DNA of 9,425 bases from positions 1 to 9,425 of the forward strand of contig JBHIER010000096.1 of assembly GCA_046760705.1 (NCBI GenBank), in the 5' to 3' direction. This document shows, one piece after another, positions 1-9,425 of the stretch (its first letter is position 1; the number at the start of each line of letters is the position of its first letter). This DNA is from JBHIER01 sp046760705 [NCBI: bacterium] (GTDB lineage: Bacteria > JBHIER01 > G020348925). The notes under the pieces are model-generated. The model worked only from the letters and a program-made list of their open reading frames with translations. It was not told the origin of the DNA and ran no database searches. The translations under genes were made by a program, and so were the position numbers.

Positions 1-1
1 C

Positions 2-771
2 ATTCCCTATGAGAATATCAGCAAGATCATAAAGCTGAACAGCCTCTGGGAGGCGGAGACGAAGATTCGCCTGCCTGGGGAGATCATCGATGAGCACATC
101 TCCTTCCGCCTGGGGGGACCTGCTTTTCGCTGACCTTCTTTCTGCAAACCATCCTCACCTTGAACGGGTTTCACTGCTACCTGGTGATGGCCGAGATGAG
201 GGCCGGAGGCGACATCCACTGCTGTCTGGTGGTGACGCTGGATGGCAGCAAGTACCTCGTCGACCCGGGATATCTGCTCCACCGGGCGATGGAGATCAAC
301 CCCGAGAGGCCCAGGCTGTACCGTACGGAGTATGCCGGTGTCGAACTGAGCTACGATCCCAGGTCCCGATATTATAACCTGTTTACGTTTGACGAAAAAG
401 AGACGAAGTGGCGGTACCGCTTTCGAGACAGGCCGACCCCAGTGGAGGAGTTTCTGCACCACTGGCACGACTCCTTCTGGAGGCCCACCCTTCACGGCAT
501 CCTGTTGACCAAAGTCTCCAAAGATGGGCTCATCTACGTCCATAAGACCTTCATGCGGGAGACGACCTTTCGAGGCAAGCGGAACGTCAACATCAAGCGA
601 AACTACCACGCCGCAATCAGCCAGATCTTCGGCATCGATAAACGGCTCATTGAGCAGGCCCAGGCTGCCCTGAAGGAGAATCTGGCAAGGGAGAGAGAAT
701 TGGGGTTGTTTCAACCCAATAAATACAAAACTCAAAATCCCAAATCCAAAATCCACAATTCAGATGAATGA
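2..771 (+). pseudogene. Arylamine N-acetyltransferase-like gene, 5' cut by window edge, frameshifted
   Basis: The encoded protein resembles the NAT family (Acetyltransf_2), which moves an acetyl or other acyl group from CoA to an amine through a Cys-His-Asp triad. Frame 2 opens the window with IPYENISKI, the family's N-terminal IPFENL-type motif, and runs to RLGG before hitting a stop at 131-133. The protein resumes in frame 1 from codon 118 as TCFSLTFFL, with the catalytic Cys codon at 121-123. The triad His is at 217-219 (GGDIHCC) and the Asp at 262-264 (YLVDPGY). Adding one G to the six-G run at 112-117 joins the two frames. As written, only a product starting at ATG 160 could be made, and it would lack the nucleophile. 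The last ~17 codons (718-768) lie in the palindromic repeat downstream, so the native C-terminus was probably a little shorter. The substrate is unknown. Family assignment is good; whether the frameshift is real or a sequencing error is open. Confidence 0.75.
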
Positions 772-2621: not shown

Positions 2622-3146
2622 TCATCCTTTGATCCCTGCAAAGAGCGACTGGGCTATCAATCCGGCAATGGGTGGGAAGAAGAATGTACTTGCGATGCGA
2701 ATGAGCGTAAATTTCCAGCCCAGTATTCCTACTTCCATCGGCAATCGGCCAACCGCCCACAATGACCATCCCGTCAGGAAGGCAACCATGGTTCCCACAC
2801 TGGCGCCGGAACGCAAAAGTCCAGCCGCAATGGGCAAGCTGACGTACGGACCTCCTGGAGCCAAGCCGCCAGCCACTGTCCCGGTGAGTATCCCTCGTAT
2901 GCCAGATTCCACACCCACCCACCCTGACAGAAGCTCTCGAGGAAGAAGAGCCTGAACCATACCGGCCACCACAAATGCGAAAAACAACAATGGCAGGATT
3001 TCAACCAGCATTTTCAGCGTTGACTTCAGACCGATTACATGCTGTGCTTCTCCTTTGCAATATCCTATATAAACCAGAACAATTGCAAGCATCCCCATTA
3101 CGATCGTTGGAATCAACATATTTGAACCTTTCTCCTCCTTGGTCAT
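2622..3146 (-). CDS. Half-size permease of the ArsP/DUF318 family
   Basis: This is a 174-residue polytopic inner-membrane protein. Hydrophobic segments lie at about 11-29, 47-66, 83-111, 116-131 and 150-171. The GG-APGGPYVSLPIAAGLL stretch around 93-111 is the conserved element that places it in the ArsP_1/DUF318 permease family. Full-length members are roughly twice as long, with two such repeats, so this is a single-repeat form that would need to dimerise. Some full-length relatives export organoarsenicals; the substrate here is unknown. Two starts are possible. The first ATG has GGTGGAG seven bases upstream. Met10 (3119) has an AAGG about seven bases upstream and a longer AAGGAGGAG run before that, and would begin directly in the first membrane segment. 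It heads the operon with the AhpD-like and GAF genes. No promoter of its own is apparent between it and the acetyltransferase remnant, so it may be transcribed from the promoter at 3723-3751. Confidence 0.75.
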   Translation of the reverse strand: MTKEEKGSNMLIPTIVMGMLAIVLVYIGYCKGEAQHVIGLKSTLKMLVEILPLLFFAFVVAGMVQALLPRELLSGWVGVESGIRGILTGTVAGGLAPGGPYVSLPIAAGLLRSGASVGTMVAFLTGWSLWAVGRLPMEVGILGWKFTLIRIASTFFFPPIAGLIAQSLFAGIKG

Positions 3147-3666: not shown

Positions 3667-3722
3667 GATCGGCCTCCTTTTGCCTCAATTTGGTCTTCCA
3701 TTACAGCGGATAATGCACTCCT

Positions 3723-3751
3723 ATAATAACATTTCTAAACCGCTTTGTCAA
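3723..3751 (-). promoter_or_regulatory. Sigma-70-type promoter for the leftward transcript
   Basis: On the minus strand TTGACA (3751-3746) is followed after exactly 17 bases by TATTAT (3728-3723). Transcription would start near 3716, about 50 bases before the ATG at 3666 with its AAGGAGG site. The target gene is now a pseudogene. The promoter may still drive the permease, AhpD-like and GAF genes downstream, since no other promoter is apparent before them. Confidence 0.7.
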
Positions 3752-3956
3752 CACATTTTTCAAGCAGTGTAAGAGAGCTCGACTCTCATCTCCCGGAAAA
3801 GGATGTGGGCCTCCGGTGGATCGGAACCCCTATCGAGGCCTTAAATGGCAGGAAACTGTCGAAAAAACTCCTTCTCTGTTCGGCAATATTCATGCCATTC
3901 CCGCTTTTCCAAAGAGATCCCGCATTTGCTCCAATGATTGAACTCTCATTTATGGG

Positions 3957-4069: not shown

Positions 4070-4096
4070 GTAGGGTGGCTTCGCAACCCGGCCTAC
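4070..4096. repeat. Imperfect palindrome in the helicase leader
   Basis: GTAGG (4070-4074) pairs with CCTAC (4092-4096), then GG with CC and TT with AA around a CGC loop: nine Watson-Crick pairs and one G-U over 27 bases. It resembles dispersed GTAGGGTGG-type repeats. It sits 34 bases before the helicase ATG and would fold in the mRNA leader. Confidence 0.4.
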
Positions 4097-4129: not shown

Positions 4130-5521
4130 ATGGAAGTCAAGCTGAGGTTTGAAAGAGGGACCCTGGTGTTGGAGAACTGGGGGGAGTCAAAGCCGCCCCC
4201 TTCCTTCACCTGGGACAGGCGGCACGAGCGGTGGCGCGCTTTCGCCATGGCTTACGCCAGCACGCTCCGCTGGCTCCAGAGGGCTGGCCACGATGTTCAG
4301 GACGGTGCCCGCAACTATCAGGCTCTGGACCTGAAGGCCAGATCGGACTTCGATCCCCGCCCCTACCAGCGGGAAGCCTTGCAGGCTTGGGAGCGCGGTC
4401 GGCGTTGCGGAAGTGTGGTCCTGCCCACCGGCACCGGGAAGAGTATCGTGGCCCTGAAAGCCATCGAGGCGGTGGGGCTGAACACCCTGGTCGTCTCCCC
4501 GACCATCGATCTCATGAACCAGTGGTACGACCTCATCTCCGGCACCTTCGGGCGGGAGATCGGCATCCTCGGCGGCGGCTATCACGAGGTGAAGGAGATC
4601 ACTGTCACCACTTACGACAGCGCTTACCTTTACATTGACCAGTACGGCGATCGGTTTGGCCTGCTGGTCTTCGACGAGGTCCACCACCTGCCGGCACCGA
4701 AGAGCTCCCACATCCCCCAGATGAGCATCGCCCCGTATCGCCTGGGACTGACAGCCACCTATCGCCGCTTGGATGGTCTGCACCTGAAGCTCCGCAGCCT
4801 CATTGGGCCGGTCGTCTACAAGAGATCGATCAAGGATTTCAAGGGCGAACACCTCTCCGACTACGAGATCGTCCGCATCAGTGTCCCTCTCAACCCTGAG
4901 GAACGAACGCGCTACGATCGACATCATCAGGTATACTCCTCCTACGCCAGGGAGCGGGGGGTCGCATATTTCGGATCGAAATCGCGCCCCTGGGAGAACT
5001 TCATCAGAGAGAGCGCCTACGACCCGGAGGCCAGGAAGGCCCTTCTGGCCCGGCGGGAAGCGCTGAAGATCTCCTCAGGAGCGAGGCGGAAAATGGAGGT
5101 CCTGGAGTCGCTCATCAAGCAGCACCATTCGCAGCGGGTCATCATCTTCACCGAAAATAACGACCTGGTCTACCGCATCTCCAGTGATTTTCTCATCCCG
5201 GCCATCACCCATCAGACGAAAACGGTGGAGCGGAGGCAGATCCTGGACCGCTTTCGAAAAGGGATTTATCGTCTCATCGTCACCTCCAAGGTGCTGAACG
5301 AAGGTGTGGACATCCCTGAGGCGAACGTGGCCATCATCCTGAGCGGATCGGCCAGTCCGCGCGAGCACCTGCAGCGATTGGGGCGGATCCTCAGAAAAAG
5401 GAGCGGCAAAAAGGCCCTGCTGTACGAAGTGGTCACCAAGGGAACCAAGGAAACAGGTGTCTCCTATCGGAGGAGAGCCAGCGATGCTTACCGGCGATCT
5501 GGTCAGATACTATATCGATAA
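4130..5521 (+). CDS. xpb: XPB-family DNA helicase (superfamily 2)
   Basis: This 463-residue ATP-dependent DNA helicase has the XPB architecture. An N-terminal damage-recognition-like region (about 1-70) is followed by helicase domain 1: RPYQREAL at 77-84, Walker A LPTGTGKS at 98-105, DEVHH box at 182-186 and TAT at 208-210. A thumb-like insert spans about 245-310. Helicase domain 2 has VIIFTENN at 337-344, VTSKVLNEGVDIPEA at 384-398 and the arginine-finger motif QRLGRILR at 415-422. After the TAT motif, where XPB proteins carry the RED triplet, this one reads R213-L214-D215. The ATG at 4130 starts MEVKLRFERGTLVLE, a typical family N-terminus; its ribosome site is weak. In archaea XPB works with the nuclease Bax1, and here the Bax1 gene starts inside its last 38 bases, so the two are probably made together for DNA repair. 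No C-terminal TFIIH-type extension is present. Confidence 0.93.
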   Translation: MEVKLRFERGTLVLENWGESKPPPSFTWDRRHERWRAFAMAYASTLRWLQRAGHDVQDGARNYQALDLKARSDFDPRPYQREALQAWERGRRCGSVVLPTGTGKSIVALKAIEAVGLNTLVVSPTIDLMNQWYDLISGTFGREIGILGGGYHEVKEITVTTYDSAYLYIDQYGDRFGLLVFDEVHHLPAPKSSHIPQMSIAPYRLGLTATYRRLDGLHLKLRSLIGPVVYKRSIKDFKGEHLSDYEIVRISVPLNPEERTRYDRHHQVYSSYARERGVAYFGSKSRPWENFIRESAYDPEARKALLARREALKISSGARRKMEVLESLIKQHHSQRVIIFTENNDLVYRISSDFLIPAITHQTKTVERRQILDRFRKGIYRLIVTSKVLNEGVDIPEANVAIILSGSASPREHLQRLGRILRKRSGKKALLYEVVTKGTKETGVSYRRRASDAYRRSGQILYR

Positions 5522-6677
5522 CGGCCGCATCTTCCCCCTCTTCGTCTCCCGAAGGGAGAGCCCCCACTATCTCACGATCTGCCGGGAGCTCATCGATATC
5601 TTCGCTGAACACGTGGGAAAGCCACGAAGGGAGCTCTCCGAGGCGCTGGAGCGGTTCGAATCCGACTCCACCGACTTTAAGATATACCGCGGCCTGGCCA
5701 AGCTGCTTCTGGACCGTTGCGCCTTTGCACCGCCCTGGGGTGGCGACTGTTCCAACTTGCGGCAAAGGGTGTTTGAAAGGGCCCAGGCGGCCTATCCCAT
5801 TGTCTTAGAGCCGGACCTGTTGCATCAGACGACAAGAGGAGATGTTCTCAACGGGGTGGCCGAAGAGCTGAGTGAATCCCAAGAGAAGCTTGATGAGCTG
5901 CTGTACGGCGACCTGGCTGAGAACCAGATTCTGGTCGGCCTCAAAAAGCAGATGGGCCCCCAGGAGTTGCTCAGGCGTTATAACCTGGCTCTGGCCCAGG
6001 GGATTCTCTATCGGGCCGTGCGCATGAGGATTTGGGTCCGGAAAGATTTTAAACCGGTCTTCAAATACATCAAACTGGCCCAGCTCATCCACGAGATTCA
6101 CCCGGTTGCCACCGGCGGGTACGAGATCATCCTCGACGGCCCGGCCTCTGTGCTGCGACACACCCAGAAGTACGGTGTGCACATGGCCCGCTTCCTCCCA
6201 GGCCTGCTCCTGGCCAAGGGGTGGCGGATGTCGGCCCTCATCGATACCGAAAAGGGGCCGAGAAGCTTCTCCCTGGACCACACCTGCGGCCTGCATACTT
6301 ATTACAGGGAGGAGCATCCCTTCGATAGCACCATTGAGGAGAAATTTTTCACAGCCTTCCAGGCAGCCAAGACAGATTGGCGGATCGAAAGAGAGGCCGA
6401 GATCATCGACCTGAGAGAGACGGTGCTGATCCCAGATTTCAAAATCACCCATCCCGATGGGCGCACCCGAGCCATGGAGATCGTCGGCTTCTGGACGCCG
6501 GAATATCTGGAGAAGAAACTGGAAAAATTGAAAAAGGCGCACCATCAGAATCTGATCATCGCCGTCAACGAGACGCTCAAATGCTCCAGAGGAGATTTTC
6601 AGGGCCAGGTGATCTTTTATAAGACCGGTATCCGGGTGCCGAAGATCCTGGAAGCCCTGGAGAGGCCAGCCCCTTAG
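5484..6677 (+). CDS. bax1: Bax1 (DUF790) nuclease, partner of XPB
   Basis: This 397-residue protein belongs to DUF790, the family of archaeal Bax1, a metal-dependent structure-specific endonuclease that binds XPB. The N-terminal part starts with MLTGDLVRYYIDNGRIFPLF, the family opening, and runs through a helical region (about 30-200). The C-terminal nuclease core has a PD-(D/E)xK-like arrangement: STIEEKFFTAF at 282-292 (E285/E286), VLIPDFKI at 314-321 (D318), MEIVGFWTPEYLEKKLEKL at 331-349 (E332, W337, K344/K345). The start at 5484 is chosen over an upstream GTG (5457) because GGAGGAG lies eight bases before this ATG and family proteins begin here. The 38-base overlap with the helicase means its ribosome site sits within the helicase coding region, suggesting translational coupling. 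Together they should unwind and cut damaged or branched DNA. Family assignment is strong; activity is inferred. Confidence 0.9.
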   Translation: MLTGDLVRYYIDNGRIFPLFVSRRESPHYLTICRELIDIFAEHVGKPRRELSEALERFESDSTDFKIYRGLAKLLLDRCAFAPPWGGDCSNLRQRVFERAQAAYPIVLEPDLLHQTTRGDVLNGVAEELSESQEKLDELLYGDLAENQILVGLKKQMGPQELLRRYNLALAQGILYRAVRMRIWVRKDFKPVFKYIKLAQLIHEIHPVATGGYEIILDGPASVLRHTQKYGVHMARFLPGLLLAKGWRMSALIDTEKGPRSFSLDHTCGLHTYYREEHPFDSTIEEKFFTAFQAAKTDWRIEREAEIIDLRETVLIPDFKITHPDGRTRAMEIVGFWTPEYLEKKLEKLKKAHHQNLIIAVNETLKCSRGDFQGQVIFYKTGIRVPKILEALERPAP

Positions 6678-6718: not shown

Positions 6719-7396
6719 ATGAGTTCTGATAAAAGAGGCAAATTCATAGTTTTTCAACGCGTATCAAAAAGGTATAAGGATTTATTCGCTCTGGATAATG
6801 TCTCCTTCGAAATAGGCGAAGGGGAGATCTTTGGATATATTGGTCCCAACGGAGCGGGTAAGACAACCACAATCAAAATCATGGTTGGTCTCATAAAAAA
6901 ATTTCAAGGCCTTACTATATTGGGGATAATAGTATGCCGGAGAATATGGCCAATGTCCAGAGAACCTTAGGAGATTGCTTTTCAGGAATGGCGAACCGTT
7001 GATCATGCCCTGACAACATTCGGAAAACTTTCAGGTCTGAAAAGCAACGAGCTTGAACAGCGTATTAAAGATGCACTTGATCTTTTGGATTTAAGCGAGG
7101 TAAGACATAAGAAGATTCTGCAAAAGGTACGACCGTTTTCTTTTCGTCGCATATATTGAGCGATGTGCAGGAATAAATAAACAAAGGCCGCATATTAAAG
7201 ATAGGTACATTGGATGATTTGAAATCTCATTTTTTCATAACTCATGACATTGAAATCTTACTATCCTCCAACTCAGGGCAGTAATGTTATAAGACTGCAG
7301 ACGGACGTCAACTGTCGCATTCGCAGTTTCAAACCGATCGCTCCTGATCTCGACGAAGTATATCTCAGGTATATAGAAAGAGATAGAAACTCATGA
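6719..7396 (+). pseudogene. Decayed ABC transporter ATP-binding protein
   Basis: The N-terminus is intact: FIVFQRVSKRYKDLFALDNVSF, then GEIFGYIGPNGAGKTTTIKIM with the Walker A motif at residues 42-50. After FQG (about 6910) the frame is lost; the continuation NSMPENMANVQRTLG is in another frame. AFQEWRTVDHALTTFGKLSG through LDLSEVRHKKI returns to the first frame (6971-7122). At about 7125 a large piece is gone: the next recognisable part, GTTVFFSSHILSDVQE, is the H-loop region, so the LSGG signature and Walker B aspartate are missing. Further shifts precede NKGRILKIGTLDDLKSHF (about 7180-7232) and the C-terminal PIAPDLDEVYLRYIE. The stop overlaps the permease start as ATGA at 7393-7396, the original operon junction. 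The gene cannot make an active ATPase. It is AT-richer than the helicase genes before it. Confidence 0.88.
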
Positions 7397-7932
7397 GTTT
7401 GACATTACTGTTTAGAGACGAACTGAAGGTTTTCTACAAATCAAATGTGATGATCCTTCTATGGATCGGATTACCTATATCCACCCTATTTTTGCATTTC
7501 TTAGCACCGCCGGATTTTGGGAAGGAGATCTCATTCAGTTTTGTCGTTTCAAGTGTGATATCCAATATTGGCGGCATCTTGGCCTCTATTATGCTCGCAG
7601 TCTACATTATTCATGAAAAAAGCAAACATGTGTACCATCTGTTCCTCATCCGACCCGTTAAAAGAAAAGATGTTATTCTGGCTAAATTTTTTGCTTTCTT
7701 TCCTTGCGTTGCAATCGCATATGGGCTCGCATTTTTGTTAGGGTTGATTATAGATTCTTTCTATCATGGCGGCATATCCAGCTCAGTTTTTAAAGGCACC
7801 ATAGTCTTGTCATTCCTGCAAATGCAGGAATCTCCTAGAGATCCCTGTATACACAGGGGCAAGGATTCCCGTATAAAAGCAGACCTGTTTGTGGCAGACA
7901 GGCCTCTGTGGCTGATGCATTTTCTGGGATAA
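7393..7932 (+). pseudogene. ABC-2-type permease, 3' end replaced by repeat sequence
   Basis: The first ~138 residues are an ABC-2-type membrane subunit. Hydrophobic segments lie at about 19-38 (VMILLWIGLPISTLFLHFLA), 48-72 and 97-121. The cytoplasmic loop HEKSKHVYHLFLIRPVKRKDVILAKF is typical of the region that contacts the ATPase. From about 7807 the frame runs into REP-like DNA (CATTCCTGCAAATGCAGGAAT and following hairpins), so residues from about 139 to 179 are not transporter sequence. The remaining membrane segments of a normal ~230-270 residue subunit are absent. The ATG overlaps the stop of the decayed ATPase gene. With both subunits broken, the exporter is dead; its substrate cannot be told. 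Confidence 0.8.
7807..7905. repeat. REP-like palindromic cluster truncating the permease gene
   Basis: Three hairpins follow one another. ATTCCTGC (7812-7819) pairs exactly with GCAGGAAT (7824-7831) around AAAT. CCCTGT (7843-7848) pairs with ACAGGG (7853-7858) around ATAC. CCTGT (7884-7888) pairs with ACAGG (7898-7902). The first, with its GTCATTCC left edge, matches the dispersed GTCATTCC-type bacterial repeats. The ABC permease reading frame loses its identity exactly at this edge. Confidence 0.65.
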
Positions 7933-8433: not shown

Positions 8434-8785
8434 CCCAAATCCTCAGGGGACAGAGTCTACCCTTGTCTGTTGACAGCATCTCCGTGCCACTTCGCCGGCC
8501 GAATTCCCCATAGCTTCAAAAATGTGTTGACAATAAGGCCTAAATATATTATTGTTGATGTGAAAGGGGGGTGATCTGAGGATGGGTTCGCAGCAGGCGG
8601 GCGGGCTTCGTTACCGTCACCTTCATCCCGTACTTCTCCCGGGAATTCCAATGGCGGTACATGAAAAAAAGCTTGCAAAAAAGCAAACTTTTACGATGTA
8701 ATAATATATACACAAAAGAGATTCCGGATGTCAAGGAAAATCCTGAGCTATCGCTCAGGAGGCTTTAAAAAACAGATAATCACAC
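8434..8785. other. Gene-free region with hairpins and possible promoters
   Basis: I recognise no protein gene here. Near the RidA end, AGGGGACAGAGTCTAC (8446-8461) resembles the edge of dispersed GGGGACAGA-type repeats. TTGACA at 8527-8532 with TATTGT at 8550-8555 (17-base spacer) could be a rightward promoter. It is followed by a purine-rich AAGGGGGG and an ATG at 8582 that opens only a 39-codon frame of unknown identity. On the minus strand TTGACA (8734-8729) with TATATA (8710-8705, 18-base spacer) points leftward. A hairpin at 8667-8692 (AAAAGCTTGC / GCAAACTTTT, one mismatch) has A- and T-runs on its two sides, like a bidirectional terminator. A remnant gene or a small RNA are both possible. 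Confidence 0.4.
8735..8760 (-). terminator. Intrinsic terminator after the IS91-like transposase genes
   Basis: TCCTGAGC (8741-8748) and GCTCAGGA (8753-8760) pair perfectly around TATC. Read leftward the hairpin is followed by TTTTCC (8740-8735), and it lies about 25 bases after the stop of the small zinc-ribbon gene. It may also belong to the terminal structure of the insertion element. Confidence 0.6.
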
Positions 8786-9019
8786 TTAGGATATATTTAT
8801 AAGTTCTTGACATGCAGGACAAATTAAGTCATTTCTTCCGCCTTCATGATGTTCCTTTCCTCCTGGGGAGAAATCTATCACTACTGGACGGGCAATGATT
8901 ATCCTGCTCTCACATCCAGAACAAACAACACTCACTTTCACGTCCTCTTGCTCTTCGAATTTAGAAGGGAAAACATAGTTGCTCAGATGCTTCCCCTTTT
9001 TTCTCTTCCTTCTCCTCAT
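8786..9019 (-). CDS. Small zinc-ribbon-like protein overlapping the transposase end
   Basis: This is a 77-residue putative protein of unknown function. A basic N-terminus (MRRRKRKKGKH) is followed by two CxxC pairs, C33-S-G-C36 and C67-P-A-C70, spaced 30 residues apart. This is the geometry of a zinc ribbon, suggesting a nucleic-acid-binding or structural role. It overlaps the last 59 bases of the transposase gene in another frame, so its N-terminus shares DNA with the acidic-to-basic tail of the transposase. The first ATG is used, with a weak GGAAAG eight bases upstream; the real N-terminus could be shorter. A stop is reached about 25 bases before an intrinsic terminator, supporting a shared transcript with the transposase. 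The CxxC pairs argue against a chance frame. It is probably an accessory gene of the IS91-like element, or a broken-off zinc finger. Confidence 0.55.
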   Translation of the reverse strand: MRRRKRKKGKHLSNYVFPSKFEEQEDVKVSVVCSGCESRIIIARPVVIDFSPGGKEHHEGGRNDLICPACQELINIS

Positions 9020-9425
9020 AATCTCTTTCCTCTATCAGTGGAACACAATCATCTTCAAAACTGTATATTATCCCATATCCTGGATGCCAAATAGAATATA
9101 ACATCATCTCCTGGCCGCAATCTTCACAAATCAGTGGATCTTTACCAAAACTCCTTATCATCCTCTCCCGATAAGAACGAGCAGGGGCTGTCTTTTTCAA
9201 AAGAAGCTCAAACTCCTGGGCTATCCCCTTGCCCTTCTCAAATAACTTTGTAAGCAATTCCCTTATCCTTGTCACTTTCCTAAAGGGATACAACCCATAA
9301 TGCCTTATCACTTTAAAGCTTTTCGGCATTATGTGTTGTATCATCCGTCTTATGAACTCATATACCGATACGCTCACCTCCACCTTCCTATCCGTAGGAT
9401 GCTCCCTGTACCAATAGGTCACCCT
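8961..9425 (-). CDS. IS91-like transposase, C-terminal part (runs off window end)
   Basis: The frame is open through the right edge of the window, so only the C-terminal ~154 residues are seen. VTYWYREHPTDRKVEVSVSVYEFIRRMIQHI followed by PKSFKVIRHYGLY is the characteristic C-terminal block of Y2 (IS91/IS801-type) rolling-circle transposases (Y2_Tnp family). Downstream is a CEDCG motif (C99/C102 counted from the Val in VTYWYRE), then an acidic tail (EERDYEEKEEKK). The catalytic HUH and double-Tyr region would lie outside the window to the right. No frameshift is seen in the visible part. The small zinc-ribbon ORF overlaps its 3' end. The element enters from the right and ends somewhere before 8735. 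Confidence 0.85.
   Translation of the reverse strand, partial: RVTYWYREHPTDRKVEVSVSVYEFIRRMIQHIMPKSFKVIRHYGLYPFRKVTRIRELLTKLFEKGKGIAQEFELLLKKTAPARSYRERMIRSFGKDPLICEDCGQEMMLYSIWHPGYGIIYSFEDDCVPLIEERDYEEKEEKKGEASEQLCFPF
9020..9425 (-). mobile_element. Part of an IS91-family insertion sequence
   Basis: This covers the unambiguous transposase part of the element, which continues beyond the window. Its left boundary is not defined: the overlapping small ORF (to 8786) and the hairpin at 8741-8760 probably belong to it as well. IS91-type elements lack terminal inverted repeats and target duplications, so no boundary repeat is expected. Confidence 0.6.

What the first reader, a model, noticed from the sequence alone, without database searches (positions are those of the whole stretch)
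4130..6677. XPB helicase-Bax1 nuclease pair in an apparently bacterial setting
The sequence shows a complete SF2 helicase with XPB motifs, overlapped by a complete DUF790 protein with acidic nuclease motifs. XPB-Bax1 is established as an archaeal unwinding-and-cutting machine for nucleotide-excision-type repair; neighbouring genes (RidA, DUF4416, IS91 transposase, sigma-70-like promoters) point to a bacterium. The pair is the only complex operon left intact between decayed genes, suggesting selection or recent acquisition. It could be a repair module parallel to UvrABC or part of genome defence.
Basis: partly seen in the sequence, partly recalled or inferred. Interest (0 to 1): 0.65.

Follow-up and report, generated by a model that had tools for sequence, protein, structure and literature searches.

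The report
Archaeal-type helicase-nuclease pair in bacterium
A bacterium carries two overlapping, well-preserved genes for a DNA-opening and DNA-cutting pair (XPB and Bax1) best known from archaea; similar pairs sit on plasmids of Deinococcus and salt-loving archaea, so this is a new member of a known kind rather than a new system.

Summary
Window 4130-5521 encodes a complete XPB-type helicase and 5484-6677 a complete Bax1/DUF790 nuclease, overlapping by 38 nt, with helicase motifs and nuclease acids intact. The setting is bacterial: the flanking acetyltransferase and DUF4416 genes are adjacent, in the same order, in a 5-Mb MAG chromosome titled Gemmatimonadota (CP070758.1), which carries the same pair elsewhere (XPB 83%, Bax1 73% identical). 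That genome also has complete uvrA, uvrB and uvrC.

The pair is not new to bacteria: 40 plasmid records hold a Bax1 relative, 11 of them Deinococcus and 29 haloarchaea, and the same 40 hold the matching XPB. A 2005 paper placed DUF790 in archaea and cyanobacteria beside such helicases. In both gene trees the window, Deinococcus and haloarchaeal-plasmid rows separate from the few archaeal reference rows; whether the bacterial pairs form one clade is unresolved.

dN/dS near 0.1 supports selection; divergence like that of neighbouring genes argues against recent acquisition; a defence role has little support. Most likely it is an auxiliary structure-specific unwinding-and-nicking complex for repair or recombination (inferred). 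New member of a known kind.

The parts
4130..5521 (+). XPB-type SF2 DNA helicase, 463 aa, with DRD domain and RecA-like domains; R-L-D at the RED position
   Evidence: Pfam and PDB matches; motifs aligned with 23 relatives
5484..6677 (+). Bax1 / DUF790 PD-(D/E)XK-type nuclease, 397 aa; acids E285/E286, D318, E332
   Evidence: Pfam full length, PDB, acids aligned with AfBax1
5484..5521 (+). 38-nt overlap of the two genes; suggests translational coupling
   Evidence: 14 nt in CP070758.1 and, by the records' annotation, in 15 of 20 fetched plasmid loci
5471..5479 (+). Shine-Dalgarno-like GGAGGAGAG ahead of the Bax1 ATG, inside the end of XPB
   Evidence: sequence; kept in CP070758.1

Best explanation
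A two-gene, probably translationally coupled operon for an XPB-Bax1 helicase-nuclease heterodimer of the type that also lives on Deinococcus and haloarchaeal plasmids. By homology with the archaeal complexes, XPB binds a double-strand/single-strand junction and uses ATP to open or translocate DNA, while Bax1, bound to XPB through its N-terminal part, cuts one strand near the junction with its C-terminal PD-(D/E)XK domain. In a bacterium that has UvrABC the pair most likely serves as an auxiliary structure-specific repair or recombination nuclease, not as the main excision-repair pathway. Shown here: gene content, motifs, linkage, purifying selection, co-presence with UvrABC in the nearest genome found. 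Inferred: complex formation, activity, substrate, cellular role.
For: Full-length matches to both partners of the solved complexes. Helicase motifs and the three nuclease acids kept. The 40 plasmid records with Bax1 (E up to 1e-5) and the 40 with XPB (E up to 1e-40) are the same; best places adjacent, same strand, XPB first in 37 of 40; of the three exceptions CP002989 has an adjacent pair at its Bax1 place, CP085884 seems to lie across the record start (inferred from positions, not fetched), CP031304 is truly separated. Several records are near-duplicates of one species. dN/dS 0.11/1.35 and 0.17/1.37 against CP070758.1. uvrA 1455 bits, uvrB 1056, uvrC 595, each over cut-off, and no ERCC4/XPF match in that genome. 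Auxiliary role: in Halobacterium, uvr mutants repair no photoproducts in the dark although rad25/XPB genes are present (PMC1590041, passages; its authors leave a sub-pathway role open); in Haloferax, loss of rad25a, c or d, but not b, impairs gene conversion (PMC11276520, passages); XPB loss in Thermococcus and Sulfolobus gives only slight UV sensitivity (PMC7690668, PMC7776575, passages).
Against: No biochemical or genetic datum for a bacterial pair turned up in the searches made. Not all archaeal features are kept: the RED motif reads RLD, and the second acid of the AfBax1 N-terminal nuclease site (E135) is alanine. Sequence identity to the solved Bax1 proteins is only 29-30%. Structure predictions were too poor to test the fold. 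Whether the window's own organism has UvrABC is not known; only its relative was searched. The Haloferax Rad25 paralogues were not checked for a Bax1 partner. The dS values are near saturation, so dN/dS is rough.
Confidence: 0.68

Rival explanations
1. The pair is a full nucleotide-excision-repair pathway parallel to UvrABC for bulky lesions, as proposed for archaea without Uvr proteins.
For: Homology to the archaeal pair proposed for such repair (PMC7293015, passages); conserved XPB damage-recognition-type domain.
Against: No obvious second incision enzyme: no ERCC4 match in the relative's genome and the putative N-terminal site of Bax1 is altered. Uvr mutants of Halobacterium show no other dark repair (PMC1590041, passages).
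Confidence: 0.12
2. The pair is a mobile or selfish, plasmid-linked or anti-foreign-DNA cassette: a helicase that opens and a nuclease that cuts invading DNA, spread between haloarchaea and bacteria.
For: Relatives lie on 40 plasmid records; the haloarchaeal plasmid rows do not group with the one other haloarchaeal row, L008 (p-AU 0.03 for XPB, 0.001 for Bax1, groups chosen after seeing the tree); the pair sits at different places in two related bacteria; XPB resembles the helicase PbeA of a defence system at E 2.2e-53 over residues 89-463 and the phosphorothioation restriction model TIGR04095 at 131 bits, below its cut-off of 600; Feder and Bujnicki left a selfish character open (PMC1189080).
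Against: No PADLOC match for Bax1; no constant third gene by product name in 20 plasmid neighbourhoods, type I restriction genes in one (L015); no match among 50,697 phage records and none in viral contigs.
Confidence: 0.15
3. The window pair is a recent transfer from archaea with no settled function.
For: GC of the pair is 57-60% against 39-54% for the other genes except RidA (58%); in CP070758.1 the pair (53%) is also richer in GC than its immediate flanks (mostly 41-49% per kb).
Against: Third-position GC (0.78, 0.74) is like the acetyltransferase and DUF4416 genes (0.74, 0.71); in CP070758.1 the pair's 53% is like four other loci of that genome (50-54%); pair DNA identity 76% is like the 73-75% of syntenic neighbours; strong purifying selection. 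No close archaeal relative was seen, though the archaea reached here are few.
Confidence: 0.05

Closest known systems
XPB-Bax1 pair of CP070758.1 (MAG titled Gemmatimonadota bacterium isolate bin29), L001 6674-9224
   Same: Same order, overlapping genes and same ribosome-binding site; XPB 83%, Bax1 73% identical
   Different: 14-nt overlap instead of 38; different place in the genome: the window's neighbours NAT, DUF4416, RidA and CMD match within 1.806-1.897 Mb, the pair lies at 0.062-0.065 Mb
Deinococcus plasmid XPB-DUF790 pairs (11 records, e.g. NC_019789.1)
   Same: Two-gene unit in a bacterium, overlapping in 10 of 11 as annotated; catalytic motifs mostly alike
   Different: Bax1 33-38%, XPB 43-47% identical; on plasmids
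Haloarchaeal plasmid XPB-DUF790 pairs (e.g. Halobacterium salinarum NC_010366.1)
   Same: Same unit; Bax1 42-45%, XPB 49-52% identical in the 8 aligned
   Different: Archaeal host; Bax1 51-64 residues longer
XPB-Bax1 of Archaeoglobus fulgidus and Sulfurisphaera tokodaii (PDB 6p66, 6p4f, 6p4o, 6p4w)
   Same: Matched along both proteins; nuclease acids alike
   Different: Bax1 29-30%, XPB 41-43% identical; RED/RDD instead of RLD; the acid at AfBax1 E135 not kept
XPB/Rad25 helicases of other bacteria (Mycobacterium tuberculosis, Kineococcus; D. radiodurans DRA0131)
   Same: Bacterial XPB-family helicases already in print (PMC3353954, PMC2587704, PMC5867870, PMC10614293, passages)
   Different: PMC3353954 says bacterial XPBs have another N-terminal domain, most likely lack the thumb motif and had no identified Bax1 complex; PMC10614293 describes DRA0131 as a RAD25-like helicase fused to an endonuclease domain. 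The window XPB has the DRD and aligns through the thumb region

Membership tests
Bax1 / DUF790 (PF05626) | Full-length profile match above the gathering score | tested here: met
   399.4 bits, positions 1-387 of 387, cut-off 28.8
Bax1 / DUF790 (PF05626) | NUS-domain acids named for AfBax1 (E275, D305, E318) | tested here: met
   Window E286, D318, E332. Across 25 aligned rows D and the last E are kept in 25; the column of AfBax1 E275 is E in only 4 of 25, whereas the neighbouring column (AfBax1 E274, window E285) is E in 24 of 25 (L012 has K), so the family-wide acid is probably the latter
Bax1 / DUF790 (PF05626) | N-terminal second site of AfBax1 (D133, E135) | tested here: not met
   D kept in 25 of 25. 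E135 position: A in the window, no acid in 12 of 13 bacterial rows (L007 has E), acid (E or D) in all 8 haloarchaeal plasmid rows and all 4 archaeal reference rows. Shown by mutation for AfBax1; not treated as defining the family
NCBIfam Bax1 equivalogs NF053694, NF053695 | Score over the curated cut-off of 500 | tested here: not met
   197 and 194 bits; so not filed in these equivalogs
XPB helicase, DRD type | XPB_DRD, RecA-like domains and ERCC3_RAD25_C above cut-off | tested here: met
   XPB_DRD 49.8, ResIII 95.5, Helicase_C 69.8, ERCC3_RAD25_C 67.4 bits, all over cut-off
XPB helicase, DRD type | RED motif | tested here: not met
   RLD. R and D kept in 24 of 24 aligned XPBs, the middle residue is E only in AfXPB and D in StXPB, so strict RED does not fit even the solved St protein and I do not use it to define this type
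NCBIfam NF045503 repair_heli_XPB | Score over the curated cut-off of 610 | tested here: not met
   205 bits; not filed in this equivalog
XPB-Bax1 operon | XPB gene directly before Bax1 on the same strand | tested here: met
XPB-Bax1 complex | Physical heterodimer; unwinding and incision of bubble or fork DNA | not testable with these tools
   needs purified proteins; fold models of the single chains unusable
Known anti-phage systems (PADLOC) | Profile match of both proteins to one system | tested here: not met
   Bax1 no match; XPB matches only helicase models, best PbeA E 2.2e-53 over residues 89-463

The most novel reading that the evidence does not exclude
The window, Deinococcus and haloarchaeal-plasmid pairs belong to one largely plasmid-borne subfamily of XPB-Bax1, with a non-acidic middle residue in the RED motif and, in its bacterial members, loss of the second Bax1 acid at the N-terminal site; it has crossed between archaea and bacteria as a two-gene cassette and serves a task other than UV excision repair, such as recombination between genome copies or control of incoming DNA, beside an intact UvrABC.
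Probability: 0.3. Interest if true: 0.6.

Novelty: new member of a known kind. Interest (0 to 1): 0.35.

Why it matters
The cell biology of XPB-Bax1 is unsettled even in archaea. Pairs in bacteria that also have UvrABC let the question 'what does XPB-Bax1 do that UvrABC does not?' be asked in a genetically tractable laboratory Deinococcus. A 2012 paper noted that no such XPB complex had been identified in bacteria (PMC3353954, passages); these gene pairs are the candidates to test.

Tried and rejected
Structure prediction of Bax1 and XPB from two-row alignments gave mean pLDDT 43 and 39; only the last hundred-odd residues of Bax1 neared 70, and no fold search was run. Viral contigs: no relative by single protein or by alignment. 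Phages: none. A wider survey of bacterial genomes failed: the single genome-contig scan used one protein and found one close relative, and the genome search gives no kin of that genome, so cyanobacterial pairs and most archaeal groups are missing from the trees. Archaeal origin of the contig rejected by synteny with a bacterial MAG. Recent acquisition rejected on divergence and codon composition. A palindrome-like stretch at 4070-4096 was tested as a dispersed repeat: one match with two mismatches to its core in the relative's genome. The stretch 3690-3790 had no match there. No Rfam family in the window and no tRNA. The phylum label of CP070758.1 is the record's own and was not tested; no paper in the held library names the record.

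Full report
What is there. The window holds two complete genes on the + strand. The first, 4130-5521, is an XPB-type helicase of 463 aa with the archaeal-type DRD domain, both RecA-like domains and the ERCC3/RAD25 C-terminal match; its best solved relative is A. fulgidus XPB at E 5.5e-109. The second is Bax1/DUF790, a full-length Pfam match of 399 bits, best solved relative AfBax1 at 1.1e-39. Its likely start is ATG 5484, not GTG 5457: relatives start at the same residue, and a GGAGGAGAG lies at 5471-5479. The genes overlap by 38 nt; in CP070758.1 the overlap is 14 nt, in 15 of 20 fetched plasmid loci also 14 nt by annotation, 1 nt in two (L004, L009), while L010 and L016 have gaps of 40 and 50 nt and L008 has another gene between.

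Motifs. Walker A, DEVHH, the motif V-like and motif VI stretches are intact. The acids that PMC7293015 names in AfBax1 (E275, D305, E318; passages) align with window E286, D318 and E332. The D and last E are kept in 25 of 25 rows; the E275 column is E in only 4 of 25, while the column beside it (window E285) is E in 24 of 25, so that one is probably the family-wide acid. Two archaeal features are not kept: the RED motif reads RLD (middle residue S in 11 Deinococcus rows; P, A or T in the haloarchaeal plasmid rows and L008; D in St; E only in Af), and the second acid of the N-terminal site of AfBax1, E135, is alanine; no acid stands there in 12 of 13 bacterial rows, but one does in all 8 haloarchaeal plasmid rows.

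The host is a bacterium. The closest pair found is in CP070758.1, a 5.04-Mb chromosome titled Gemmatimonadota. The acetyltransferase and DUF4416 genes at the left of the window are 71% and 74% identical to two genes that are adjacent in the same order in that chromosome, next to what reads as a sigma-factor gene (by eye). RidA (73-74%) and the CMD protein (76%) match at 1.806 and 1.896 Mb, so the four neighbours fall within about 91 kb, while the pair lies at 0.062-0.065 Mb. DUF4416, RidA and CMD were sought in the whole genome, the acetyltransferase only in the fetched stretches. GAF, ArsP, ABC and IS91 proteins gave no match in the fetched stretches and were not sought in the rest. The pair has therefore moved relative to its neighbours in one of the two lineages, or was gained at different places.

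Selection and age. Against CP070758.1, XPB has dN 0.11 and dS 1.35, Bax1 dN 0.17 and dS 1.37 (Nei-Gojobori, 14 codons at the overlap left out of each gene); dS is near saturation. DNA identity of the pair is 76% over 2.5 kb, that of the acetyltransferase and DUF4416 stretches 73% and 75%, of RidA 74%. Third-position GC of the pair, 0.78 and 0.74, is like the acetyltransferase and DUF4416 genes, 0.74 and 0.71; the other genes are lower, the ABC and IS91 parts lowest. In CP070758.1 the pair's GC of 53% is like four other loci (50-54%) but above its immediate flanks (mostly 41-49% per kb). On balance this fits long residence, not recent arrival.

Repair context. The relative's genome has one full uvrA, uvrB and uvrC each over cut-off (partial or weaker matches also exist), one match to the XPB C-terminal family, one DUF790 and no ERCC4 nuclease (the control rang in four archaea of 14 genomes). 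So the pair stands beside UvrABC there. The window's own genome is not held. D. radiodurans is listed with UvrABC and the XPB homologue DRA0131 in PMC2587704 (passages); DRA0131 is described as fused to an endonuclease domain (PMC10614293, passages), a different arrangement.

Distribution. tblastn against 72,556 plasmid records found Bax1 in 40, of which 11 Deinococcus and 29 haloarchaea, several of them near-duplicates; the XPB query with limit 1e-40 found the same 40. Best places are adjacent in 37 of 40; of the others CP002989 has an adjacent pair, CP085884 seems to span the record start (inferred), CP031304 is separated. I fetched 20 of the 40 loci, all 11 Deinococcus and 9 haloarchaeal. 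No third gene is constant by product name; DNA-related neighbours vary (a topoisomerase in L004, spore photoproduct lyase family in L014, restriction genes in L015, a UvrD-like helicase in L021, an SOS-associated peptidase in L022). The control genomes of the genome search ring for DUF790 in Deinobacterium, Haloferax, Sulfolobus and Methanosarcina, 4 of 14.

Trees. In both gene trees (24 XPB, 25 Bax1 rows) the window and CP070758.1 pair together, and with Deinococcus and haloarchaeal-plasmid rows they lie on one side of a branch (100/98 and 100/99) from Af, St, 8gy8 (Bax1 only) and L008. Holding the haloarchaeal plasmid rows together with L008, the other haloarchaeal type, is rejected (p-AU 0.03 and 0.001), but the groups were chosen after the tree was seen. 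A bacterial clade is neither shown nor rejected (XPB p-AU 0.40; Bax1 present with 56/6 support); nor is window plus haloarchaeal plasmids (XPB present with 76/44; Bax1 p-AU 0.32) or Deinococcus plus haloarchaeal plasmids (0.12 and 0.53). Trees are unrooted, long branches are flagged, the PDB rows are partial and of deviating composition, and the archaeal reference rows are only three or four.

Literature. Feder and Bujnicki 2005 (PMC1189080, section 19) already wrote that DUF790 is found almost only in archaea and cyanobacteria and is usually associated with COG1061 helicases. PMC3353954 (passages) wrote in 2012 that such an XPB complex had not been identified in bacteria. Searches of the held library for Bax1 with XPB, with bacteria and with Deinococcus, for DUF790, COG3372, DRA0131 and bacterial XPB listed no title or abstract on a bacterial pair; most of the papers listed were not opened, and most subscription papers are not held. 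Two primary Bax1 papers of 2009 and 2010 were not held.

Function. By homology the pair should open and nick DNA junctions. Genetics in archaea that have both systems points away from main UV repair (PMC1590041) and towards recombination or gene conversion (PMC11276520; one of four paralogues had no effect, and a link to Bax1-partnered paralogues was not checked). I therefore favour an auxiliary structure-specific role, at moderate confidence.

Noticed in passing
6719-7400 (+): ABC transporter ATPase remnant with stops and frame changes (by eye), followed by a partial ABC-2 membrane gene (7393-7932).
   Followed up: partly
1-771 (+): Arylamine N-acetyltransferase-like gene with one frameshift near 112-127; open in CP070758.1.
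   Followed up: yes
2622-3146 (-): ArsP-type permease gene that covers only positions 9-135 of the 294-position family profile.
   Followed up: no
3716-3765 and 8513-8562: Inverted 50-nt stretches, 74% complementary, each holding TTGACA (promoter scan for the first, by eye for the second), flanking the segment with XPB, Bax1, ABC and RidA.
   Followed up: partly
4070-4096: Palindrome-like stretch with a GGGT...ACCC stem just upstream of XPB; no second copy in the window, one weak match in CP070758.1.
   Followed up: yes
8961-9425 (-): C-terminal part of an IS91-family transposase at the window edge; about 49 residues follow the end of the family match.
   Followed up: no
CP070758.1 (G001) 2.52, 2.74 and 3.36 Mb: Partial UvrA-like pieces (profile positions 564-924 and 2-538 in two places) and a short UvrC-like protein besides the full copies.
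   Followed up: no
Bax1 alignment column of AfBax1 E275: The residue named as catalytic in the AfBax1 paper is E in only 4 of 25 aligned rows; the residue before it is E in 24 of 25.
   Followed up: partly
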